NCBI GenBank assembly: GCA_030272155.1
Contig: CP126192.1
Location: forward strand, 6,730,501-6,794,500
Direction: 5' to 3'
Length of the DNA: 64,000 nt
DNA from: Tetradesmus obliquus
Taxonomy: Eukaryota > Chlorophyta > Chlorophyceae > Sphaeropleales > Scenedesmaceae
This document shows positions 15,601 to 37,700 of the stretch, piece by piece. A model generated the notes under the pieces. The model was not told the origin of the DNA. It saw only the letters and a list, made by a program, of their open reading frames with translations, and searched no databases. A program made the position numbers and the translations under genes. Each line of letters starts with the position of its first letter. The first letter of the stretch is position 1.

Positions 15601-17069
15601 TCAAATACATAATTGAGGGCGAGATTACGCTGCAAAACACGTACGACAAGATCCTGCCAATCTCCAGCGTCAACGTGCTGCTCGGCAGTGCGAAAGTTCC
15701 TGCAAGCTGTGCATATCCCAATGCTGGCTTGGACCCCCGGTCAACCGTTAAATGCACCTTTGCGCTGCTGTACAGTCTGGGTCCCACGCCAGGTTCCCTC
15801 GATGTCGAGGTGGCGTACCCAGACACACCGGTGCGGTCAAACGCAGACGCGCAGGCGCCGTTTGACTTTTCGAACGCTGACGTCAGCGTCGCAAGCGGGC
15901 TCTGCGCCTCGGTCAACATGTCATTTGCCGCGAATGAAGGCATGGGGCTTGTGAAGAGCAATGATGTGGGGGCTACGCCACTGGGGGTGGATGGGCAGGG
16001 GGTGCGAGTGTGTGGCACCACGCAGTTTGGGTTTGATGTGGCGTACAACCCCAACCTGCCGCTCAGCTGTGGGCCGCAGCTGGTGAGCAAGAGTGGCAGC
16101 GCACAGCTTGCATGTGTTTGATTGCATGCATGTATGTGTTTGTTTGATGTGGCGTACAACCCCAACCTGCCGCTCAGCTGTGGGCCGCAGCTGGTGAGTA
16201 TGCAACAGCAGCAACTGCTGCAGCACGCTGCCTGCATGGGGCATGGACGCAGAAAAAGCAGCAGCAGCAGCTGCAGCTGCTGCCAGAGAGTGATGTGTGC
16301 TGTGCATGCTATGGCTGACTGCACTAGCCTACTGTTCAAAGGGCTGTAGATTTGGATTGCAGTGCAGAACAGTGGAGCGACAGCGCTGAGTGGAGTCTGC
16401 TTGGCATGCTTGCTGATTGTTAGGTGCTGCAGCTGCCTCAACCTCTGCCGCGACCGCTGCTGCTGCTGCTGCTGCTGCCGCCGCTGCTGCTGCTGCTATC
16501 AACGTCACTACAACAGGTGCTGGGGACAGCCATGGTCATGGAGGATGAGACAGGCAAGATCCCGCCACACTCTGCTGTCGCTATCGCCACCATCAACGTC
16601 ACCTGCGGCGGCTCCTTGCTCGACAGCAACAACGGCGGCAGCGCTGCTTCAGCACCTGTGCCACCTGGCGAAACTGGCGGCGGCGTAACTGTTACTTTGG
16701 GTGACGTAAACACCAAGCCGGTGGAGAACGTGGTGTGGACGCTGCGGCTCAACCCTAATGGGCTCACAGGCAACAAGGTCACAAAGCCTGCTGATGGAAG
16801 CGTGGACCTGAAGTTCGATGTTGTGCACTCGCGCTCTGTGGAGACGGTGAGTTTGTGGACGTGATACCATACTTCCAGCGAGATCGTTTGTGTTGAAGGA
16901 CTGGAAGTGGTACGCGTGTGCGGGCTTATCACTGCTTGCAGGAAGCCAGTTTTAGAAGCGCGCACAACTGCTTTGCTGTCATCATCAGTCGTCAAGTGGC
17001 TGCATCGCTTCATGCTGCTGCTCAGCTGTCTATCATACTTAAGCCGCTACCTGCTGCTGCTGCTGCCGC

Positions 17070-22495: not shown

Positions 22496-23263
22496 ATGCA
22501 GCCAAGCCCTGGGGCTTCTGCAGACGTCCAGTCTGCAGCAGAAGACCTGCTGGGCAAGCTCCAGCAGGCACGAACAGACCTGCAACGCACAGCCTCAGCC
22601 CAACAGCAGCATCATGCAGCATCTGGTGGTCATCTACAGGCCCCCACTGCAGCTGATGGCACACTGAGCCCTGACATTGCCAGGTAAGATGCACAGATGC
22701 TTCAAGCACACATGCAGATGCTCGCATGTTAGTAGTGCCTTGATGCACAGGTTTCGAGCATTGATTGGAATTTTTGCTGCAGCAGCATGCAGTGCGGACA
22801 GCCGTCAGAATTCCTATTGTTCAGCCAAGGCTAGCCATACTGCTGCGCATAGCTTGCAGGAATCAAACAGCAAGTAGGCAGCCACATAGCACTGTGAGGA
22901 GATCCTCTCAGGTCTGTTGCCAGAGTTGATAGGCTTGTGTGCTACCAGGTGCACACGGTTGAGCTTTTACCCCGCTGGGTTTGCAGACGCAAGCAATCCA
23001 CGCCATAACCAAGGTCTGTGTTGTATGCTTGCTGTACACGTTGCAATGCACCACATTGTGGCATGAACTTACGTGTTGTGCGTTGTGACCTGCAGGGACA
23101 TGGCAAGCAGGGACGTGAAAGATGACAGCAACGAGCTCTCGCCCTTTGCCACCCACCCGCCAGTTCACCAGCGCACTGACAGCAACTACACTTCAGCGGC
23201 ATCAAGCGCGGATGCAAGCAACCTGCTTGCTGCTGCTGCTGCTGCTGCTCCAAATCAACCTGG

Positions 23264-23298
<35 letters not shown>

Positions 23299-26200
23299 CG
23301 GCAGCACCAGCAGCAGCAGCGGCGCCAGCAGGGGCACCAGCTGATGATGTGCCGCTGGGTGGCAGCGTGTGTGGCGATGACGTGAAAACCGCAGCTGACA
23401 ACAACGCAGCAGCAGCAGCAGCAGCAGCAGGTGGTGCTGGTGATGGCAAGGCAGCACGGGAGCGCCCGCCCAGCTCCAATGGGCAGCAGGGCGGCAAGAG
23501 GCTCATCCCTCTGAGAGCGGTAGGTGTTATCGCTTTGTCATTGCAACAGCAGCAGCAGCAGCAGCACTAGTAAGCCTGCGGGTGCAGCAAGCAGCTGCTA
23601 TCGCAGGAGCAGTACGGCAGGAGCTGCAGCACAGCTGGAGCTATGGATGCTGCTGTCATTGTCTTTTGCATTGCATCCATCGCACACATACAGTGTGCTG
23701 CAGTGTCTTTGCAGCAGGAGCATTCTGTTGGTTGGTGTACGGCTTGCAGGCAGGCTGCAGCCCATTCCTAGGCAGTACAGGTCCCGAGGCAGTACATGCA
23801 TGATGCCTAAGGATGGCAGTTCATGCAGTAGATGATATTTTGCACGTGCTGGCTCAATATTTGGCCTGCCTAACAACATGCCTTCATGAGCAACAGGACT
23901 GCTGCATTGTTATGCACATTCACACATGTACTGCCTTGCACTTTCCCAGATGTACTGCCACATGTACTGCCTGTGTACCACCTCTGCACCACCTTGCTAC
24001 CGCAGGTGCTGCAGCACTCGTATGAGTTCCACGGCCTGAACGAGCTCGCCATGTTTCGCTCACCCCCACCTGAAATGTCTCATACATTTGTACCGCCTCA
24101 CACATCTGTGCTGCCTCACACATTTGTACCGCCTTTCATACCGCAGGTGCTGCAGCACTCTTACGAAAATTGCAGCCTGAACAAGCTCACTTGCCATGTT
24201 CTGCTCACCTCCACCTGTAACCGCCTTGCATATGCCCTGTCTCACACGTTTGTATCGCCTTTTGTACCGCAGGTGCTGCAGCACTCGTACGATCACCATG
24301 GCCTAAACGAGCTCGCCATGTTCTGCTCGCCCCCTCTGTACTGCCTCACACATATGTACTGCCTTACACAACTGCCTCAAACATGTGTACTTGCCTTCGT
24401 ACCGCAGGTGCTGCAGCACTCGTACGAGTACCACCACCTGGACGAGCTCGCCATGTTCCGCACACCGTCAACTGTACTGCCTAACACATATGCACTGTCT
24501 CACACATTTGTACCGCCTTTCATACCGCAGGTGCTGCAGCACTCGTACGAGTACCACGGCCTCAACGAGCTCGCCATGTTCTGTGTAACCGCATTGGCTG
24601 TCACACTTGTGCTGTACTGGCACTGGGGCAGCTTCACTGCGATCTTCAAGGCGGGCGTGCAGCGCAGCTTCTCCAGCTACGGCAACCCCGACTGGCAGAG
24701 CCAGACGATGGTGAATGTGGACACCATGCACGATGCTGTGGAGTACAGCATGGGGTGGAGCGAGTTCTGGCTGCAGCGCGCCGAGGATGTGGGTGAGTGT
24801 GTGAAGTTTGATGTCAAGGGTTGTGTGTAGGGGCAGGGGCTGATGCTGATGTAGGAGGGGTGCTTGCTCCTGAATGTTGTTGATTGACCTGCACTGATTA
24901 GCCTGCTGTGCACTTGTATGCGGCATAGTCAATTTTCACAGCCGTTCAAATGCACTTTAGCGCGTGCCATGCGCGCACTGCTGCTCAGAGTGCAGCACAC
25001 GCACATGCGCGCACGCGCGAATGTGAGCACCTCCGTTATGCTTGAATCTTGAGAACAGTGAGTCTGTCGGTATCCTTCTTCTCTCAAATGCAGACTGGAG
25101 CAACACGCTGATTCGTGCGGGCGAGTACGGCGACGTGCGCTACTCGCGCATGATCGTCAACATCCAGCGCAACTGCGATGAGCGGCTGTCCCCAAACCTC
25201 GAGTGCTACACAGATGACCCGCTCACGCAGCAGCTGCGCAACGGCACAATTGGAAAGCAGCTCGGCATACCTGGCAACAAGACATGGGACAATCTGCTGG
25301 AGTATGCGGGCTGGGAGCGGCTGGCGCTGCCTTCGGTGCGGGACTCGACGAAAACCCAGTCGCCGTGGTGGGCTTATACGCTGGTGGCGCCCAAGTGAGT
25401 CTGATGCATAAGCACGAATGCACACATCATGATGTTTTGTGGAGTACGAATGTGCGGCCTGTGTGTACATGCTTGCGCGTGCGATTGCTTGTTGGGTAGC
25501 GTGGTAGGTGAGGCTTGCTGTAGCTTCTGCTTTGTGTCATATAGATAGGTTGCGTGTGTTGCAAAGCGTAACGCTCCTTGACAGCAGCAACTCCTACAGC
25601 ATGCGCGGCACGCCTGCTGGACTCGCACACTTGCACACACGAATGTGGCGGCACGGGGTGACGTGCCCAATGCGTTCACTGTCTGCCTGTCTCTTGGTCT
25701 GCCGGTCTACCTGTCTGATGTATATCCGCCGCGTGTTACGCTATCTTGCTTGCAGGTACGGCGGCGCCCCTGCCAACCGCAGCCAGTTCCTTGGCAGGCT
25801 CTACAACATCACTCGCGCCACCAGCCTCAACATAAACAACTGCGACTGGCTGGCAACCGACTGCAGCAACAGCAGCGACAAGAACCCCTGCGAAAAACAA
25901 AACGTGCCGAACAATGTATGGTTTGAAAAGATCTGCAACAGCAGCGGCAGCAGCAGGGATGTGGCAATTGGGTCGTTCATTCGGCGCGGCAGCGGCTCTT
26001 TTGTGCGGGACCCGCAGCCACAAGCCGATGGGTGAGCCTGCGCTGAAACACATCTGGCTGTTCTGGCTATTGTTCATGTGACACTGTGGTGTAAAGCAAC
26101 GGATGTGTTTCACAGGCGCGCAGGCGAAGCTAGCAGCTGTGCGGTGCAGGGTGCGCCTTGTGTGAAGATGTAGCAACCCACCTGTCTTTATATCTCTTGC

Positions 26201-27760
26201 GTACTGGCTCTCCTTCCCTGCCCTGCAGACCTACCGTGCTGGATCTGTTATCTAACATGTTAGTCTTGTCATGTTGGTGCTTGCAGCCCGGCCGTGCTTG
26301 ACCTCAAGCCCTGGCTGTCCAAGCTTGCCTACTCCACCGGCTTGTTATTATCGTGTTACTGATGTTCCTTGTGAGCTCGCAGCCCTACCCTGCTGGACCT
26401 CAAGCCCTGGATGTCCCAAGTTTGCCTACTCCCCCGCTTGTTACTAACGCGTCACTTTGTCACTTTGGTTCTTGCAGCGCCGCCGTGCTTGACCTCAAGC
26501 CCTGGCTGTCCAAGTTTGCCTACTCCATCGGCCTTGACGTGCTGGCTGCGAATGCAATGGACGACACGCGGGACAAGAAGCACAAGCGCACCGACCGCGA
26601 CCGCGCCGTGTTCAGCATGCTGTTCCAGCGCTCCGCAGGGGCTGAGGAGAAGCCGGACCGCGTGCTGTGGCAGGTGCGGTGCGGTGTGGTGCATTCGTTT
26701 CAGAGGAGCGAAAGCAGCTGCAGTGACTGCGCAGGCAAGGCCCATGGTGCCTGGCATTCGCACACGTACTCAACCTCCACTTAGTCTGTCTGGCTGTCAC
26801 CGCCTCTTCGCATTGCTGTTCACAGATCACGAGCACCGTGCCTGTGCGCACCAGCTTCTACACCTACAGCGTGGACTGGGAGCGCATCGGCTTCGAGGCG
26901 CTGCTGTACCTGTGCATGATCTTCGTGATGGCATCACAGGTGCGTGTGTGTTTGGCAGGAGGCTGGAAGCTGCTTTGTGTGTGAATCATGCTGGCCTCAC
27001 AGGTGCAAAAGCAGCTTCTGTGTTGTGTGGTGGTGTGCCGTTTGTGTTGTGCCGGCACCACAGCTTGTGTGGCAGGGGCGGATGTGCTGCTGTACCTGTG
27101 CATGATCTGATGGCCTCGCAGGTGCGTGAGGGTGTGTGGAGTGGGGTGCTGATCTGTGATGATTGTATTGTGCTGGCTCTGTAGGTGTGTCACAGTTGGG
27201 TGTGCGCTGATGGGTTGCGCTGCTGTAGCTGTGCATGATCTTCGTGAGGGCCTCACAGGTGGAGCTGCTTGGCTTGCTGCACACGGGCGTTGTTGCTGCT
27301 TGCTTCAAGAGTACGGCAGGAGTGATCACAGCTTAAGGGGTAAACCCTTACGCATTCAAGCATGCATGCAGTTCTGTGCTGCATGCCGCAAGTGCGGCGC
27401 CTCCCTGTGTGTTTTGCCGTTTGGTGTATGGCTATCGCTTGTCAGCTGACACGTGCATGCGCATGCTGTGCTGTGCTGTGCCCCATGCTGCAGGTGTGGC
27501 AGTTCCGAGTGTGCCAGATCCAGTTCAAGTCCGGCTGGAAGTTCTTCTCTCAGTACTGGAACATCTACGAAGTGATGAGGTGCGGCCCCTGCCTTTCGCT
27601 GTCTTTGCTCGGTGCTGCCTCTGCTTGCTGCTGGGCTTGTGGCACGTGATTACGCTCGTGCATAGATTGTTTGCTACTGGGTGCTCTACTTGATGCTGCT
27701 GCTGAACCTGCAGCTGTGCCATTGCTGACCTGGCTGCATTGCTTCTTTCAGCGCCGTCTC

Positions 27761-27806
<46 letters not shown>

Positions 27807-27900
27807 GTTTCACTACTGTGTGCTCTACTTCATGCTGCTGCTGAGTCTGCTGCTGCACCATTGCTGACCTAGCTGCATTGCTATTTTTTTGCGCCCTCTC

Positions 27901-27937
<37 letters not shown>

Positions 27938-30900
27938 TGCTGCTGCTGCGTTCACCCCCCGCAGCACGGTGCTCACGCTGGCGTGGATTGTGTTCTACTG
28001 GGTGCTCTACTTCACGCTGCTGCGGCAGCACAGCAACTGGGACTTTGACTCGTGCGACATTGCGGCAGGCTCAGCCGGGCACGCGCAGCTGAATGACGTC
28101 ATGACGTGGAGCTACTACTATGGCGCCTGGCTGTACTTTGGGATCGTGGTGGATTTTGTGATCTTCCTGCGTATCGCGCGCTACATGAGGATCCACAGGG
28201 GTTTGAAGGCCTTTTATCAGGTGGGTTTTGAGGGTTCACAAAGTCTGGGAGTTGGAGTTATGGTGTGGTGTACATGTTTGGTATGGCGCCTGGTGTACAT
28301 AAGCACTGTGGTGGACCTCCTTGTCTTCATGCGCATCGCGTGCTCCATGCGTATCCACAAGATTTTAAACGCCTTCTCCACAATGGTTCCAGGTTCCTTG
28401 TTTGCATTGACTGCTTGAAATGCAGGTTTTCATCATCGCCGCGCGCGAGTTCCTGGACTTTGCGGTGTTCCTGCTGTTCATCCTGGTGCTGCTGGGCAGC
28501 GCCGTCTTTGCCTTCTTCCAGCTCACGGGCGGAAACTTCCAGTTCCTGCGCTTCGCGGACGGCCTCAGCCTCATGTCGCGCCTCACGTTTGGTAAGTGTA
28601 CGGCTGTAGCATCATGTGTTTCAACGCTCTGTACTATGCTGATGGTCCGAGCCGTGTCTCTTTTTGCATGTCGTGCCTTTGCATGTCGTGCCTCAGGTAT
28701 GTTGGGTCTGCGGCTGCAGCCTGATGGCTGCCCAGCGGTGCCGCAGCAACACCGCCGCATCACTCTTTGCATGTGAAACCGCCATGCCCAGCCTGCTTCC
28801 TGCTCCCATGCAGCTAGTTCAACCTAGTCCAACCTAGTCCAACCTACACATGCCACTTTGTGGCGCTGCTGCCGCAGGCTTTTTGTCCTATGAGGACTTT
28901 CAGAGCCAGGCGCTGGGCGTGGGCGCTGCAGTGTCTGCAGTCACGCTGCTGTTTTGGGTGGCGGTGCTCCTGCTGGTGGTGAGTCTGGCGGCATTGCTGG
29001 GCACTGCTGCGCATTGCTGGGCACTGCTGCGCATTGCTGGGCACTGCTGCGCATTGCTGGGCACTGCTGCGCATTGCTGGGCACTGCTGCGCATTGCTGG
29101 GCACTGCTGCGCATTGCTGGGCACTGCTGCGCATTGCTCCAGCAGCATGAGTTGTGCCATTACATGCAGTACAAGTAGGAGTGCAGCTCAGCATATGTAA
29201 GTGCCTGGCAGCAGGCTTAGCCAGATGCAGCCCTACAATCTGTCCTGTAACATTTTAGTCGCAGCAAAGCGGCAATGCATTGAAGCCCAACCTTGGACAA
29301 CCACAGTCCTAAGTAGGAGCTGTTGCACTATTTCACAGTCAGCTTCTCATACGTTTCACACCCAACATCACATCCCATCTCACACCCAACTTCCCACCCA
29401 ACTTCACGGCCACCTGCAGGTCTACACCCAGAACATCATCCTCGCCATTGTGGCAGAAGCGTATGAGGAGGCAGAAGTCAAGCCTAGGCACAGCTAAACT
29501 TCACAGTCAACCTCTAACAACTTCACACTCAACTTCACGCCCAACTTCACGCCCTGTCGCAGGCCTACACCCAGAACATCATCCTTGCCATTGTGGCAGA
29601 GGCCTATGAGGAGGCCAAGTTAAGCCTGGGCACAGCAGAACTTCAAAGTCAACCTCTAACAACTTCACACTCAACTCGCACCAAACTTCACACCCTGCCG
29701 CAGGTCTACACCCAGAACATCATCCTCGCCATCGTGGCAGAGGCCTATGAGGAGGCAAAGTCAAGCCTAGGGACAGCCGAGACGTCCTTCCTGATGCTGG
29801 TCATCATGCGCATCATCTTCAGCTGCCTGTTTGTCATCTACCGCGCGCGCATGTTCTGCAAAGACATGCTGGAGCTCGTATTTGGCAGGCAATTCTGTGC
29901 GGGGAGCCAGGCCAGCCGCACGGTGAGACAACAGCTTTGATGCAGACCCAGCAGTGTAACTGCTGCTCCAGTGAAGCGCGGGGCTGCTTGCTTTCGCTAT
30001 ATGGCGTGATGAGTAGTTTGATCATGAAACAGCAGCGCATGCATGGCAGATGCGGGCGGCTGAGTGCCTGCAGCCTTCCCATGCTGCTCCTGGTCACTTT
30101 GTTATGCTTTCGCGCACATGGCCCAATCACGCTACGACGTCAACACACAAATGCGCAGGCTGCTACCTTATCTTATAATGCTGCATATATGTTTCTTGCA
30201 GATGTCTGGCTTCCTTGGTGGCTCGGCGCCCGACTTTGGCAGCAATGGTGGCAGCGGCGCTGGCCACGCCTTTAGCAGCAGCACCTCCCCACGGGCAGTA
30301 ACATCCTACGCGTCTGCCGCCAGCGGCGCCAACGCACCTCGCAGCAGCTTTGCAGCATCAGATGCAATGGCGAGCCCCTTCGAAGGCGATGCTGGCAGCA
30401 ACAACACGCTTGCAGTAGACAGCCAATTGCTGGCCCCGACAATGAGCTACATGCCGCTGCCCCCAGATGTGGAAAGCGGCCTGCGGCGCAGCCAGCACTC
30501 TTTTGTGCCTGCGCGGCAGCTCACCGGCAGCCGAACCGGCAGCAAGATCGTCAGCAGGAACGGCGGCAGCAGGCTGCGCACCTTCCAGGTGCTGTCTGGA
30601 AAGGTGGCCACGCACAATAGCTTGCAGGAGATTGCAGATACAGCTGCGGCTGTAGATGCAGAGGCTGGGGCGGGCTGCGGCGGTGCTGCAGATGGCGCAG
30701 ATGATGATCAGCAGTGTACGATTTTGGAGCAGCAGCTGCAGGTGCCGAGCTTGCGGCAGCGGGCGCGCAACTTGTGGAACGGGCTGTTTGGAGAGCGGCA
30801 TGATGTGCGCATGTACAAGGACCTGCTGGTCAAGCAGCACAAGGTGAGCAGGGCTGCTTCTGCAAACATGACGAGAGTATTCCTATGGGCGGGATTACAG

Positions 30901-31262
30901 CTGCTGCCTTTGATGCCTGATGTGCTTGTACAAGGACCTGCTGGTGAAGCAACACAATGTGAGCAGGACAGGCTTTGCGTATCTGTCGGGTGTTGCGCTG
31001 GGGGGATTACTGCTGCTGGCCCCGTTCCGGTTGCGGCTTTACACGGACCTGCTGGTCAAGCAGCACAAGGTGAGCAGGGTAGGTTCTTTCTTCAAGGCGT
31101 CGTCTTCAGGTGCGGATGCTGCTGCTGCTTTCGTGCTGATGCGCATAAAAGGACCTTCCAGGGGTGGACCGCCACCTGGGCGGGTCGCTACTGACCGCCT
31201 TCTCTTGTCTCCCCGCGCCGCCGCCGCTGCTGCTGCTGGTGGTGGAGCTCTTGTTGACTTCA

Positions 31263-31298
<36 letters not shown>

Positions 31299-31999
31299 CG
31301 TTACATCTGCTGCAGCATGACCAAGGCTGGATCGCCTCCTACAAGGCTCGCTACTGGCTGCCGTGGTGTGTGGCGCGCACGCGGCCCGTGCTCAACCTGG
31401 TGCACCTGTACCAGGAGTTCACCAGCTACAAGCTGCGCTACACATGCACATGGGAGGAGGTGCGGGCCTCTGGTTGCAAGGGATTCCTTGCTTTTGTTTG
31501 CCTTGCTTTGCGTTTTTGATATGCCAGCTACAAGCTGCGCTACACATGCACATGGGGGAGGTGCGGGCCTGGTCTGAATGCATGGTTGCGATAGTTTGTC
31601 TTGCTCTGCTTTTGTGGTTCACTAGCTGCAAACTGCGCTACATGAGCACCAGGGAGGAGGTGCTTACACGACAGTGGTTCTACTGCCTGTTTGCTTGAAT
31701 GCTTTGCCCCCTTGTGGTATTGAAGTCACCAGCTGCAAGCTGCGCTATGCCAGAGTCAAGCTGCACATTCGCCTGTTACGGCACGAGGGCTCTGCCTGAT
31801 GCCTGGCTTGGTGCATGCTGCGCTTCGTGCACCTGTAGAACACAACAGCGCTGACCTGTCAGCACATAACAACTGCATTCAACGCATCCCAACACCACCA
31901 CTCGCAGCTGCTGCTGACATCCTCAGACACACATCGCTGCTGCTCTCTCACCAAACCCTGCAGGCCGACAAGCTGGGGCAGAAGATCTTTGCGCCCGAC

Positions 32000-32030
<31 letters not shown>

Positions 32031-34779
32031 GCTCAGGCCACCTGCTGGCCGCGCAGCAGCACAGCGTGCTACCCACAGTGCCCTCTTCAAAAGATGCTTC
32101 AGCCGCCGGCGGCAGCACAGCCTGCTGCACCTCGCCGGCAGCAGCAGCAGCAGCGGCGCGCATGGGGCCCAGCAGCTTGCCGCCGCTGAATGAGGACACG
32201 TATGTGGACAAGGACACGCTGTCGAGGCTGTTCCTGGTGTCCAGCCAGGTGGCCAAGGAGGTGCAGGTGAGGCGCTGGTTGGCTTAAAGCTGACAAGGAA
32301 TGGTTTACTACAGCCAAACCCAGCCAAACCCAGCAGGGCTGTTCATGTCTAGGGCAGAAGGGGAGGATGTTGGCTGTGTGCAGATGTAGACCGGTTTTGT
32401 GGCGTTTTGTGGTGTTCTGCGATGTGCGGTGTGCGGATGTAATTGGTTGTGGCTGGCAGCTGATGCCGCCGAGGTTGCTGCTGCTACACGCTCCGCAGCA
32501 TGCTGCCTTTGCTGGCTGATATGTCACTGGGCCCTTCCGCGAGCTCACCGGGCCCTCTTTGTACCTCTTGTCTGATTGGTGCTGCTGCTGCTGCTGCTGC
32601 TGCTGCTTCGGCTGCTGCTGCTGCTGCTGCTGATTCCCTGCAGGTGTTTGGCTGGTTTGGGCCCTTCCGCGAGCTCACTGGGCACTCCGTGGGCTACCTG
32701 ATGGATGGCATAGCGCAGGTACACACATGTTGCAAACATGCAGCCTTTACACTTTAGCTTACTTTGTGTAGAGCAACCATCCTGATGGATGGACGAAGGC
32801 TCCGCAGCATGTTGCTGTTTGTCTCTCAGTGGTTGCTAGCAGCAGGCAAGTCCTGACAACTGTTATTGACCAGTGACAAGACGCACCCCAGCTTAGATAT
32901 GGCTACATACCCACCAGCTACTCAATGCATGGCATGGATGGAACCTGCATGTGTCCTTGCAGGTGCACGGCATAGACGAAGACGAAGCGCAGCGCATTGG
33001 CGCTGTGGCATGGACCAGCGACGGCAGCAGCAGCGGCGGTGCCGGAGGCTTGGGCTACGCGCTGGCTGCGGCTGGCAGCAGCGGCATGCGCAGCGGCAGC
33101 GTTGACCTGGGTGGTGGGCAGGTGGGTGGCCGTCTGCTGTGGTAGCTGCCGCGCATTGGGTGGATCTTGGCTGGCATGCTGTTGGCAGGCAGTGCTCGGG
33201 TTGCTGTTGTGGGCCACTGGTATGTATTCTCGCTGCGCTGTGAATTTGCTTGACTATCGAGGCCTGTGCCATTTTTTAGTGTTTGTGCTTTCATGTTTGC
33301 GCTGCTCACTGCTGCCAGTCACGCCAGCTTGCTGCTGCTGCCACTCACTGCCTGCACGCTTGCTGCTGCTGCTGCAGAGGGAGCGGCGTGGCTTTGTGGC
33401 GGGGCTGAACGCCAAGCGGCGTGGCGGCGACAAGATGGAGCTGCTCATGCGGGCACAGCGCCGCATGGAAGAGAACGGCATCAAGTGAGGCTGCTGATCT
33501 CGCTGATGGCTGATCTCGCTTATGGCTGATCACTTGATTTGTAGTGGTGATAGTGGTGTTTTCGTAGAGATTCATAGTGATGTGTATATACGCAGCGCGC
33601 GCAGCGGCGCATGGAGGAGAACGGCATCATGTGAGGCCCGCTGCTTGTGATTGTGTCTGTGTGTTGCTCTCATATAACGAAGCTGTCGCTGAGCGGAATC
33701 GCTGTTACAGCAAAGAGAAGAACGGCTTCGTAAGTGAGCGGGCGTGCTGGGCTATTGCTTGCTGTGCTGGGTAAGGCATGCAGCTGTTCCACATTGGTTG
33801 TCATTTCTTGACCAAGAGCTGCGTTGTTCAGCCATGGCTGCTTACAACTGGCTTTTGGCTGCAGTATAGTGCGGGACACATCATCTGCGACTCCATACCC
33901 ACGCGCCTTCTTTTTTGTAATTGTGCAATCCTTGCTGCTTGCTTCTGCTGCTGTTGCTGCTGCTGCTGTTTTGCTTCGTGCCACAGGCTGCAGAACCAGC
34001 TGGCAATGCAGCTGGCCAACTACCAGCAGCGTGTCAACCACACCGAGAGCAAGTTGGGGGAGCAGCTGAGGGCCATGTCACAAAAGCTTGAGGCAATCAG
34101 CCACCAAACTGCTGCTGCAGTGGCGGCAGCAGCAGCGCCTGCAGCAGCAACAGCATCCTTGGCCCCAGGCCAACCCCCAGCAGCAGCAGAGCGGGGGCTG
34201 TCATCTAGCCAGCGTGTGAACACCCTCAGCAAAGCAGCGCATGCGATCAGTCCGGCAATTAAATGGGCCACCAGCAGCCGCAGGGGCAGCTCCTTTGCAG
34301 GAGCAGCCAAAGGCAGCAGGCAGTCGGCGCCAGGCACGGCAGCAGCAGCGGCGGCTGCAGTGGCGGCTGCTGGACCTACTGCTGCTGCTGAGCAGCACCC
34401 GCTGCTGGCAGCGCCGGCAGCAGCAGCAGCAGCAGCAAGCGCAGACGACCTTCAGGGACTGAATGCAGTAGCTGAAGGTGGCGACGCTGCTGCATTTGAT
34501 GCTGCTGCTAACGCTGGCCCTGGACCTGACTTTGGATCTGCATCAGATATGGCTGCATTTGCAGCAGCAGGAGGAGGCCCCGGCCGCAGTGCATTCTCCA
34601 GATCTGCTTCTGCAGCATCCCGTGCGTCTGCTGCAAGCGGAGCGTCAGTGACAAGTTGCGGCGACCAGCAGCCGGCGGCTGAGGGTGAGGTGCTGCAGCA
34701 GATGCAGGCCATGCAGCAGCAGATGCAGGCCATGATGCAGATGCTGCAGCAGATGCAGCCGCAGCAGCAGCAGCAGTGA
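22496..34779 (+). CDS. Polycystin-2 / TRP-type cation channel, 19 exons
   Basis: Exons: 22496-22683, 23096-23519, 24531-24792, 25094-25394, 25756-26031, 26478-26673, 26826-26939, 27494-27579, 27965-28220, 28426-28591, 28878-28978, 29704-29922, 30202-30843, 31316-31459, 31964-32266, 32644-32718, 32963-33121, 33378-33484, 33987-34779. All phases agree, giving about 1603 residues. Order: low-complexity N-terminus; S1 near 218-238 (FCVTALAVTLVLYW); a large extracellular loop (240-545) with Cys and several NxT/S sites, as in the polycystin domain; S2 (560-587); S3 (617-637); S4 (662-690, VDFVIFLRIARYMRIHR); S5 (702-738); pore (739-765, FLRFADGLSLMSRLTFG); S6 ending in NIILAIVAEAYEEAK, close to the PKD2 NMFLAIINDTY signature. 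A further hydrophobic stretch follows (LMLVIMRIIFSCLFVIY). The C-terminus has a short coiled coil (LQNQLAMQLANYQQRV). In green algae, polycystins act in cilia; here location is inference. Many exon edges have extra intronic copies. Confidence 0.88.
24006..24600 (+). repeat. Five-fold tandem array of the exon 3 start with its 3' splice site
   Basis: The segment CCGCAG|GTGCTGCAGCACTC and about 50 further coding bases start at 24006, 24147, 24273, 24408 and 24531. The offsets 141, 126, 135 and 123 are all multiples of three. The frame is open from 23886 to 24830. Each copy reads VLQHSYE..GLNELAMF or a variant, followed by a HTFVPPFIPQ-like linker. The fifth copy leads into S1 and is taken as the real exon. 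Confidence 0.92.
26229..26540 (+). repeat. Copies of the exon 6 start and acceptor
   Basis: The true acceptor is at 26478 (GCCGTGCTTGACCTCAAGCC). Clear copies with their own CAG begin at 26287 and 26383, and a shorter eroded one at 26229. The offset is about 95 bases. The copies carry frame-disturbing changes, for example one extra base in CCCAAGTTTG. Confidence 0.9.
26905..27262 (+). repeat. Copies of the exon 7 end and donor
   Basis: The exon 7 end (CTGTACCTGTGCATGATCTT ... CACAG|GTGCG, donor at 26940) recurs around 27085-27125 and 27218-27260, each ending in CCTC(G/A)CAG|GTG. A stub, GGCCTCACAG|GTG, sits at 26994-27005. The copies have internal stops. Confidence 0.88.
27660..28005 (+). 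repeat. Copies of the exon 9 start between CTG tracts
   Basis: The exon 9 piece TACTGGGTGCTCTACTTC (27996-28013) has two diverged intronic copies near 27674-27705 and 27812-27845. Each is followed by GCTGACCT(G/A)GCTGCATTGC and a (CTG)n tract, so the repeated unit is about 140-160 bases. Confidence 0.85.
28118..28395 (+). repeat. Copy of the exon 9 end in the following intron
   Basis: Bases 28120-28220 of exon 9 (TATGGCGCCTGG through ATCCACAGG, S4 region) recur at 28281-28390 with many substitutions. The copy still reads as hydrophobic VYISTVVDLLVFMRIACSM but ends without a good donor. Confidence 0.8.
28991..29138 (+). repeat. 20-bp tandem repeat, seven copies
   Basis: GCATTGCTGGGCACTGCTGC is repeated seven times without change plus 8 bases, starting 12 bases after the exon 11 donor (28979). 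The perfect identity points to very recent expansion. Confidence 0.97.
29420..29765 (+). repeat. Three copies of the exon 12 start and acceptor
   Basis: GCAG|G(T/C)CTACACCCAGAAC starts at 29420, 29563 and 29704. The offset from the second to the third copy is 141 bases and the frame between them stays open. The first copy ends in a stop after about 25 codons. This block encodes the NIILAIVAEAYEEAK end of S6. Confidence 0.93.
30810..31080 (+). repeat. Three copies of the exon 13 end and donor
   Basis: Donors at 30844, 30959 and 31070 each follow TACA(A/C)GGACCTGCTGGT and a CAGCACAAG-like end, and each continues GTGAGCAGG. The spacing is 115 and 111 bases. Confidence 0.92.
31415..31775 (+). 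repeat. Four copies of the exon 14 end
   Basis: AGCT(A/G)CAAGCTGCGCTA begins at 31424, 31526, 31624 (one change) and 31731. The first three run to a GAGGAG|GTGC or GGGGAG|GTGC donor; the fourth drifts away. The spacing is 98-107 bases. Confidence 0.9.
32505..32690 (+). repeat. Copy of the exon 16 start upstream of the exon
   Basis: GGGCCCTTCCGCGAGCTCAC in exon 16 (from 32659) is found unchanged from 32529. A (CTG)n tract at 32581-32630 separates the two. Confidence 0.88.
33430..33740 (+). repeat. Copies of the exon 18 end and donor
   Basis: The exon 18 end (CGCCGCATGGAAGAGAACGG, donor 33485) recurs at 33595-33634 with its own GTGAGG. A weaker copy (AAAGAGAAGAACGGCTTCG) lies at 33712-33736 with GTAAGTGAG. 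Confidence 0.85.
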
Positions 34780-37700
34780 AAATGCTGTGGCTGTGCATTC
34801 GTGCTGTTGGATGTGTGTTGCTTGGACAGTGTGCAGTGCTACCAGGGGATTTTTTGGCTGGGCTTGGGAGGGGTCGTCTGTGTTGGCAGTTGAGTAGCAG
34901 GGTATGTAGGGGCAGCATCTGAGTTTGAGTCACAAAGAGCATTGTTCACAGCAGAGCCCTGTTACACAAATTTGTTGGACTTTGTTTCAATGCTGTGCCT
35001 GGAAGGTTGTGTGGAAAGGATACATGGCATTCTGTGCCTTGCCGATTGCAACGACGTTGCGACGATGGCGGTTGCACGTGTAGGTCGGCCGCAGGGGTCC
35101 CATGTCGTGTGTAGGTGGGGTTTAGCGGTTACTTCTTCTGTGGGGGTTCAGGCAGTTGCCAGAGATACAGCAGGTGGGAAGTCAAGCAGCAGTGTCGAAC
35201 AAGTGGTTTGTGTGCTCGAACGTGTGTTGCGGTGTACACTCCTGTGGTGCGCTGCACCGTGTCAGTGTTGCCCCTCGCCTGAAGCATGTTGCAGGTGTGT
35301 GCAGGGCCATGAGTTTTGGCTGTAGGCCAGCTAGCTAGATGGTGCAGCACATCACAAACGGCAGGTGTGTTCAGTACAAGCCACAGGGCATGGCTGTAGT
35401 TCAGCTGGCTTTCTGGTGCAGCGGGACGGGTTCACAGAGTAGTGCAGTTCAGGCAGATCAACGTGACTAGTGTGTCATTGGGTGATAGAGGGTGTCTTCC
35501 CGTGTGTGGGCTCTTGTTCAATTAGCAGCATCAGCACAATTGCTTTGCTTGCAGAAACATCTTGCTGCGCCTGCCTAAGCAGCAGCAGCATGCTGCAGAA
35601 GTCGTTGCTGCTGCACTTACAGTATAATGGTTGTTTTGGATTAGCAGCCCTGCAGGGAAAGTCTGCCATGCCTGCACCTGTAGGCCAATGAAACGAGGTC
35701 CGCAGTTGCACATGCAATAGGCTGATCTTTTCTCAGCAGCTCCTGGGCATCACTTTCACGATCTGGCACACCCTGCTTTCTTGCGCTTGCACAGTTGGTA
35801 GCACATGGGTTGGGCAGGTTGGCAGCTTGTACAAAGAAGAGACATACATGAGGCCACACAGCGGCTTATGCTGAGCAGCCGTCAAGTCCCTGGACTTGTA
35901 CCGCAGCTGCTGTACATGCAGCGTTGCTTTGCATGCGATTGCTGTGCTACTTTCGTGTGAGGTGGGTGGCAGGATTAGGGGGGCGAGGTGCATGAGCGAT
36001 TCGCCATGTTGGTAGTGTGTGTGGCGGGGGCGGTGCAGGGTGTATTTGACGTGCTGTTATGCTCAGCGTTGCATTGGTAGGTTTTTCTTTGCACAGCCTC
36101 TGTCTGGAATGCAGATCAACGCAGCAAAGTGGCGTGCTGCACCTGTTGCAGTAGAGTTGCTGGGGGGCCAGTGAGAGCTACATGCACATCCACTGCACCC
36201 CTGCTGCCTGTTGTTTGGCTGCCATCAGGACTGCTGCAGCTGCTGCAGCGGTGCGTGTTGCTGAAAACGTTAAGCTGGTGGTCTCATATGCTGGTTGTGA
36301 GATGCCCCTATATCGCATTCTTTGTTGTGGCCTATATATGCGTGCACACAGCAGCAATTGCACTGGTGGGTGTGGCTTGCATCGTGTGCAGGCACAGGCC
36401 GGTTGCTTGCTGCATGTGGCATGCTGTTCGCCATGATGCGCGTGCTTCAAAATTGCAGCCATTAGGCTTGCAGGTGTTGCAGGCTGGCATCAACTGCAGC
36501 TGCATTCAAGTGGTCATCCCAGTATCATGGCTGAGTGCGGATTCATCAACATGTGCGTCTGCTGTTGCTGTGGTGGTGGCACATAATGGTTTGATGAGCA
36601 TGACCACATGCAGCGAGCACATGTTTGTCCTTCTGGTGCCGGCTTGGTGGTGGTGGTTGCAGCTGCGCGTGCAGCGCTTGTTTTCAGTCTGTGCAGAAGC
36701 AGTAGCCACGCATTCTACAATCTGCAGTAGCGCAGTCGATTTTCGTCACATGCTTTGGCATACGCGGTTCTTGCAATCAGAACATTCCTGAGAAGTGCGC
36801 AGACAGGCTGTTTTTGGCTACACAGCATCCGCATGCGCATGCCGCAAAGCACTCGTGCTGCTCCAGGCACAAGCACGCAGCAATGTTGAGTTGCCATGCT
36901 GGTTGGGCAAAAATGCTCCATGTTGGTGAATGCTCTGCTGTCAGTCAAGGTGGTGTGGTAGCTGTTGTAGCACTGATGACTGATGTCCCTGCCAGCGCTG
37001 TTGATTGGCCGAAAGGCAGGGATTAGGCAGCAAGGGTGCTTCGTACAGTGTATGATGGTGCCAAGTTGATAGTGTAGCGTGCGACAGGCACGCCAATGCA
37101 GGCTGCCATGAAGACAGCAGTCGCGTGCAATGCAGGCTGCCATGAAGACAGCAGTCGCGTGCAATGCAGGCTGCCATGAAGACAGCAGTCGCGTGCAATG
37201 CAGGCTGCCATGAAGACAGCAGTCGCGTGCAATGCAGGCTGCCATGAAGACAGCAGTCGCGTGCAATGCAGGCTGCCATGAAGACAGCAGTCGCGTGCAA
37301 TGCAGGCTGCCATGAAGACAGCAGTCGCGTGCAATGCACGCTGCCATGAAGATAGCAGTCGCGTGCAATGCAGGCTGCCATGAAGACAGCAGTCGCGTGC
37401 AATGCAGGCTGCCATGAAGACAGCAGTCGCGTGCAATGCAGGCTGCCATGAAGACAGCAGTCGCGTGCAATGCAGGCTGCCATGAAGACAGCAGTCGCGT
37501 GCAATGCAGGCTGCCATGAAGATAGCAGTCGCGTGCAATGCAGGCTGCCATGAAGACAGCAGTCGCGTGCAATGCAGGCTGCCATGAAGACAGCAGTCGC
37601 GTGCAACAAGTGCTGCAGCAAGACGCACGCATGATGCGGCATGCTCGTGGCTTGCAGAACAGGCCATAGCTGGACAGTCGATGGAGGTGAAATCATGCTC

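What the first reader, a model, noticed from the sequence alone, without database searches (positions are those of the whole stretch)
22496..34779. Exon-edge 'stutter': most exon borders of the channel gene have ghost copies in the adjoining intron
At least nine borders (exons 3, 6, 7, 9 start and end, 12, 13, 14, 16, 18) have one to four diverged copies of 30-100 exon bases plus the splice site, spaced 95-160 bases. Start-side copies lie upstream and end-side copies downstream, as tandem duplication across a border would give. This looks like a recurrent process rather than single events. It bears on the model in which tandem duplication of AGGT-containing exon sequence creates new introns, and supplies decoy or alternative splice sites.
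Basis: partly seen in the sequence, partly recalled or inferred. Interest (0 to 1): 0.9.

Follow-up and report, generated by a model that had tools for sequence, protein, structure and literature searches.

The report
Exon-edge echoes lengthening algal introns
In this green alga, introns repeatedly pick up decayed copies of the ends of their neighbouring exons, splice site included, which lets us watch introns grow by short duplications across exon borders.

Summary
The gene encodes a Tetradesmus channel-like protein. In a sample of this genome, 73 of 386 predicted exon edges match the adjacent intron on the expected side, against 1 of 230 on the wrong side, 6 of 186 mid-exon and 0 of 3,630 unrelated introns. 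A hold-out gave 16 of 84 against 0 of 42. Each ghost goes with about 115 bp more intron; at that size ghosts fill about 20% of sampled intron bases. They do not code.

Best explanation: recurrent tandem duplication of units of about 125 bp across borders, tolerated because splicing keeps using the first donor or last acceptor. Intron growth is supported; intron creation by AGGT duplication is not shown.

Two features exceed a neutral model. Intron-internal duplications are too rare (5 of 71; 19-40% expected). Ghost exon parts change about three times slower than expected. No RNA and no relative's DNA was available.

The parts
22496..34779 (+). Coding span of the channel gene, 19 coding exons (my exons 2-20)
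   Evidence: open frame of 1,603 aa; first 17 junctions agree with P0001 and P0002
24531..24583 (+).
24006..24458 (+). Four ghosts of exon 4 start: 24006-24055, 24147-24199, 24273-24325, 24408-24458 (83-94% identity)
   Evidence: TRF array 23998-24583
26287..26431 (+). Two ghosts of exon 7 start (real border 26478): 26287-26345, 26383-26431
   Evidence: TRF period 96
27082..27258 (+). Two ghosts of exon 8 end (real border 26939): 27082-27121, 27217-27258
27643..27841 (+). Two ghosts of exon 10 start (real border 27965): 27643-27701, 27783-27841; the nearer one aligns only from 30 nt inside the exon
28308..28382 (+). Ghost of exon 10 end (real border 28220), 75% identity, the most diverged of the 20
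29420..29639 (+). Two ghosts of exon 13 start (real border 29704): 29420-29493, 29563-29639; full head-to-tail array, period 141
30913..31069 (+). Two ghosts of exon 14 end (real border 30843): 30913-30958, 31032-31069; period 115
31523..31766 (+). Three ghosts of exon 15 end (real border 31459): 31523-31560, 31617-31659, 31726-31766
32514..32557 (+). Ghost of exon 17 start (real border 32644); alignment stops 14 nt short of the junction
33595..33630 (+). Ghost of exon 19 end (real border 33484)
16031..16198 (+). Same feature in another predicted gene: exon end 16031-16087 repeated without change at 16142-16198, with an unrelated 54-bp spacer

Best explanation
In this Tetradesmus genome, DNA straddling exon-intron borders is recurrently duplicated in tandem, in units of mostly 85-155 bp (median 125). 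A unit across a donor leaves a second exon end plus GT downstream; a unit across an acceptor leaves a second AG plus exon start upstream. The protein stays intact as long as splicing uses the first donor or the last acceptor, so the outer copy becomes intron. Each event lengthens the intron by about one unit, and further rounds give arrays with up to five ghosts. The outer copies then decay as noncoding DNA. SHOWN: position, side rule, frequency, association with intron length, noncoding decay. INFERRED: that the events are DNA-level duplications (for example fill-in of staggered breaks followed by end joining, or unequal exchange), and that splicing ignores the ghosts. OPEN: why border units outnumber intron-internal ones, and why the exonic part of ghosts changes about three times slower than neutral expectation.
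For: Side rule: 32/195 starts and 41/191 ends match the adjacent intron at SW>=40; wrong side 1/111 and 0/119; mid-exon 1/95 and 5/91; unrelated introns 0/3,630. Hold-out: 8/43 and 8/41 vs 0/42 controls and 0/816. Local repeats are direct: 268 direct pairs at offsets 60-700 against 1 inverted pair at 40-700 (31 inverted hits with centres under 40 bp apart set aside); hold-out 2 inverted in that range. Full head-to-tail units with near-identical intron parts exist, e.g. L002 2627-2959 at 100% and L015 3505-3837 at 97.5%. Median intron length for 0-5 ghosts: 280.5, 382, 551, 573.5, 702, 891; slope 103+-12 bp. Ghost decay: 46 of 49 indels are not multiples of three. Of 42 amino-acid differences in channel ghosts, 3 occur in any of five orthologues, and two are stops.
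Against: Neutral tandem duplication predicts 36-40% intron-internal cases, or 19-23% if ghost exon parts are given a slower rate; 5 of 71 were seen. Several young ghosts (95-100% in the exon part) have intron flanks no more alike than shuffled sequence: W 16031, L009, L011, L012. Exon-ghost differences show a third-position ratio of 3.0, against 1.6 in simulation. Simulations with ghost exon parts at 0.2-0.33 of the neutral rate come close to both, but not exactly, and I have no demonstrated cause for that rate. Longer introns could in principle also offer more room for ghosts, so the length trend is association.
Confidence: 0.62

Rival explanations
1. Ordinary: tandem duplications fall at random. 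Border cases dominate only because introns are short relative to the unit, duplications inside exons are purged, and copies of a conserved exon stay recognisable longer. No border preference and no function.
For: Geometry and differential decay do favour borders: neutral simulations of random events give 60-64% border cases. For ghosts with 80-90% exon identity, the simulated flank profile is close to the observed one.
Against: 5 of 71 introns with repeats are internal-only, vs 36-40% expected under neutrality and 19-23% with a slower ghost rate (P=0.0004 at 23%, treating introns as independent). Codon-position ratio 3.0 vs 1.6. Aligned exonic part shorter than simulated (median 49 vs 59 nt).
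Confidence: 0.2
2. Ghosts are kept by selection as functional decoy or alternative splice sites with their exon context.
For: The exon part changes about 3 times slower than expected by two measures. Among ghosts that keep AG or GT, splice signals score far above random intronic AG/GT even where the flanks are unrelated (acceptor tract 2.2 vs -4.9, n=24, p=1e-8; donor +3..+8 2.9 vs -4.3, n=30, p=1e-14). Acceptor signal does not fall with divergence (p=0.21).
Against: Ghost GT is lost in 11 of 56 (2 of them GC), no better kept than the exon body. Donor signal falls with divergence (p=0.04). Spacing modulo 3 is flat (35, 40, 39). Frameshifts and stops accumulate.
Confidence: 0.15
3. The exon block with its splice consensus is copied on its own (templated insertion), or two diverged haplotypes are joined at an offset, so that intron flanks differ from birth.
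For: 92 of 133 ghost alignments reach the junction exactly. Identity drops at about +6 and about -5, sharply so in the hold-out. Young ghosts with unrelated flanks. Coding-like exon-ghost differences.
Against: Introns with ghosts are longer by a whole unit per ghost, not only by the exon block. Ghosts have their own polypyrimidine tracts, which insertion at a random intron site would not give. In two loci searched against the whole genome, no second full copy was found. Channel ghost residues do not match other strains (1 of 42 in P0001/P0002).
Confidence: 0.15
4. Assembly or polishing artefact.
For: No second assembly could be inspected.
Against: Copies are mostly diverged, carry private changes, form ordered arrays, and occur in 15 of 21 discovery regions with predicted introns and again in the hold-out.
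Confidence: 0.03

Closest known systems
[quoted passage not shown] Hellsten 2011 ATP2A1, both seen only as cited; potato RdRp case, PMC4974935)
   Same: Short direct duplication of exon or intron-exon sequence, with splice signals inherited from the parent copy (potato case).
   Different: There a new intron is created, from an AGGT exon segment or (potato) from a duplicated intron-exon stretch. Here existing introns are lengthened, recurrently and on both exon sides, across a genome sample.
Tandem-duplication introns in Drosophila (PMC2891723)
   Same: Regional tandem duplication with proto-splice sites and tolerated duplicated exon sequence.
   Different: Seven inferred cases not supported by conservation of the duplicated exon sequence; here 133 recognisable copies at 74 borders.
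Small tandem duplications at staggered breaks (Pol alpha-primase/CST plus end joining, PMC8355091)
   Same: Direct, local, short duplications; a plausible mutational source.
   Different: That paper's introduction speaks of short insertions under 100 bp in humans; here units are mostly 85-155 bp and border-anchored. The mechanism was not tested.
Introner-like elements (features recalled, not from a call)
   Same: Recurrent change of intron content.
   Different: Introners are families shared between loci; ghosts resemble only their own exon.

Membership tests
Tandem genomic duplication | Direct local copy of identifiable source sequence | tested here: met
Tandem genomic duplication | Head-to-tail unit including the intron part | tested here: inconclusive
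   Clear in arrays such as exon 13, L002, L015; not visible in many ghosts with unrelated flanks; added length favours whole units
Intron gain by tandem duplication (Rogers) | Duplicated segment holds AGGT that supplies both splice sites | tested here: inconclusive
   AG|GT enrichment not significant
Intron gain by tandem duplication (Rogers) | New intron at a position lacking one in relatives | not testable with these tools
   No relative's DNA was available; only proteins
Intron gain by tandem duplication (Rogers) | Encoded peptide unchanged | tested here: met
   Channel gene only: its exons join to a protein like that of relatives, which carry no ghost sequence; predicted proteins, no RNA
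Introner-like elements | Same sequence family inserted in many loci | tested here: not met
   Of 24 spacers, matches longer than 24 bp in the 264 kb arose for three only, each within its own locus; no edge matched an unrelated intron at SW>=40 (0/3,630)
Functional alternative splice sites | Ghost sites spliced in mRNA | not testable with these tools
   No RNA reads available

The most novel reading that the evidence does not exclude
Duplication in this lineage is targeted to exon-intron borders (units reaching about 45-50 nt into the exon and, by subtraction, about 70-80 nt into the intron), making exon-edge echoing a standing, splice-site-anchored engine of intron growth. In addition, the exon part of each echo is shielded from change about three-fold, by weak function or by some exchange that involves the exon.
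Probability: 0.3. Interest if true: 0.85.

Novelty: new variant of a known kind. Interest (0 to 1): 0.62.

Why it matters
How introns grow and arise is an old question with few dated cases. Here a third of sampled introns carry duplication remnants whose divergence can be measured (64 of 193), so rate, size, decay and splice-site choice can be studied in one genome. At 115 bp each, they amount to about 20% of intron bases. Published mean intron length is 462 bp in T. obliquus against 230-302 in four other green algae (PMC5966456, Table 1 passage), so ghosts may explain part of that excess. They also mislead gene prediction.

Tried and rejected
Rejected: chance similarity (0/3,630). Ghosts as coding alternative exons (frameshifts, spacing modulo 3, orthologues). 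Spacers as a mobile family. Gene conversion alone: by my reasoning, not simulated, it leaves the codon-position ratio at or below about 2, against 3.0 seen. A distinct 'copy-paste' class, which I first read into the sharp boundaries, was weakened. Allelic replacement could by my reasoning mimic the codon ratio, but a simulation with faster exon third positions raised the internal fraction to 45%, against 5 of 71 seen. First-round self-training of the gene finder drifted and was discarded. The L019 protein search found no homologue.

Limits: only the channel gene is checked junction by junction. Gene models elsewhere are my own self-trained predictions; 14 of 18 channel exons were exact, and that gene seeded the training. 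P0008 (82%) supports the L014 gene as a whole, but I did not align it exon by exon. In one search the end of channel exon 19 was 2 nt off; corrected. Border-versus-internal counts concern introns up to 1,000 bp and units of roughly 60 bp and more; short-period minisatellites exist in introns and were not counted, and the absence of offsets under 60 is partly a limit of method (the 20-bp array at 28991 appears there at offset 60). Four introns with other exon-involving repeats are left out of the 71. P values treat introns as independent. No paper describing these ghosts appeared in searches (listings and abstract starts only, except the papers named); organism searches were 5, 18, 61.
Full report
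Setting. The window lies on contig C2 of a 104.7-Mb, 17-contig genome. The gene's product matches T. obliquus proteins at 97% over the searched part, so the organism is Tetradesmus obliquus or a very close relative. The product carries a weak ion-transport domain match (PF00520, 23.4 bits, cut-off 25); no PDB sequence matched. Calling it polycystin-like is my recollection, not a result.

Observation. I placed exons by frame and splice signals. For the first 18 coding exons I checked every junction against five relatives: P0001 and P0002 agree at all 17 junctions, the more distant ones where they align. Ghosts of exon edges occur at exactly the ten borders named: 20 ghosts, 10 of 18 introns, the nearest 95-182 bp from each border. 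In one search nine of these scored 50-123, against a maximum of 27 over 664 non-adjacent comparisons.

Genome sample. I fetched 20 stretches of 10 kb and built a self-trained gene finder (249 exons, 204 introns in 264 kb). At a Smith-Waterman score of 40 or more: starts vs upstream intron 32 of 195; ends vs downstream intron 41 of 191; wrong side 1 of 111 and 0 of 119; mid-exon 1 of 95 and 5 of 91; unrelated introns 0 of 3,630. Five further stretches with the model frozen gave 8 of 43 and 8 of 41, controls 0 of 42, unrelated 0 of 816. An iterative search at score 36 found 133 ghosts at 74 borders, out of 388 borders of exons of 40 nt or more.

Anatomy. Of 133 ghosts, 92 align to the very junction and 114 to within 6 nt. 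Of those 114, AG is kept in 55 of 58 and GT in 45 of 56. Successive spacing (114 values) has median 125; 91 lie at 85-155 and the rest run from 65 to 339, with no preference for multiples of three. Annotation-blind comparison gives 268 direct pairs at offsets 60-700, most often 100-140, and 1 inverted pair at 40-700. Median intron length rises by about one unit per ghost: 280.5 (n=116), 382 (25), 551 (16), 573.5 (6), 702 (6), 891 (4). Taking 115 bp per ghost, ghosts amount to 20% of intron bases in 193 introns.

Decay. In ghost exon parts, differences from the exon are 0.051, 0.049 and 0.151 at codon positions 1-3, and 46 of 49 indels shift the frame. In the channel, 42 codons differ in amino acid; one ghost residue occurs in P0001/P0002 and three in any of five relatives; two are stops. 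So ghosts do not code. Identity falls beyond about +6 (donor) or about -5 (acceptor), most abruptly in the hold-out, and some young copies have unrelated flanks (W 16031-16087 vs 16142-16198 is 57 of 57). I first took this as a separate kind of copying. Simulated head-to-tail duplication with decay also gives a falling profile, though a slower one for young ghosts. If the ghost exon part is given 0.2-0.33 of the neutral rate, the share of unrelated flanks in three age classes (observed 0.35, 0.65, 0.75; simulated 0.21-0.29, 0.53-0.67, 0.86-0.93) and the codon ratio (observed 3.0; simulated 2.8-3.7) are roughly matched. Ghost splice signals stay well above random intronic sites, but ghost GT is no better conserved than the exon body and donor strength falls with divergence, while acceptor strength does not. 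Function is not shown.

Border excess. Of 170 introns of up to 1,000 bp, 55 had border repeats, 4 internal-only, 4 other exon-involving repeats, 107 none; hold-out 11, 1, 0 and 25. Simulated random duplication with decay expects 36-40% internal-only, and 19-23% even with the slower ghost rate. Pooled, 5 of 71 is below this. Misplaced exons and uncounted short-period repeats could inflate the gap, so I call the excess likely rather than settled. Aligned exonic parts are somewhat shorter than simulated (median 49 vs 59 nt).

Mechanism. Shown: direct copies, outward order, longer introns by whole units, noncoding decay. Inferred: border-spanning tandem duplication, tolerated because the first donor or last acceptor rebuilds the old exon. 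Break-repair fill-in (PMC8355091, abstract and introduction read) or unequal exchange could produce the units; neither was tested.

Literature. PMC4974935 (passages, including part of the abstract) describes a potato intron gained by duplication of an intron-exon stretch, and reviews the AGGT model. PMC2891723 (abstract, section 10) infers seven tandem-duplication introns. PMC5966456 (passages) lists the longest mean introns for T. obliquus among five green algae. PMC3488318 was seen in passages only. Nothing in my seven searches on the subject describes recurrent exon-edge ghosts across a genome; Zhuo 2007, Rogers 1989 and Hellsten 2011 were seen only as cited.

Noticed in passing
L019 gene model (predicted protein): Ghosts can fool gene prediction: my model for L019 includes a peptide twice (QRPMAREALLPSLQLLDSL), most likely because a ghost was called an exon. 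Public annotations of this species may hold such errors.
   Followed up: partly
window 37094-37606: A 34-bp minisatellite, 15 copies at 98% match.
   Followed up: no
window 28991-29138: A perfect 20-bp tandem array of 7.4 copies inside intron 12 of the channel gene, 13 bp after the end of exon 12.
   Followed up: no
L017 1-6039: Two long tandem arrays (smallest offsets 274 and 351 bp) span about 6 kb, likely a satellite region.
   Followed up: no
L003 (whole, C2:1000001-1010000): GC 0.649, the highest of the 20 first stretches, with predicted genes on one strand and no ghosts in 7 introns; perhaps a different kind of region.
   Followed up: no
border ghosts, discovery set: No successive spacing under 65 bp on the donor side or 77 bp on the acceptor side; no cause established.
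   Followed up: partly
window 1-64000: CpG is depleted (observed/expected 0.42-0.85 per 2 kb) and GCA/CTG trinucleotide runs are very common.
   Followed up: no
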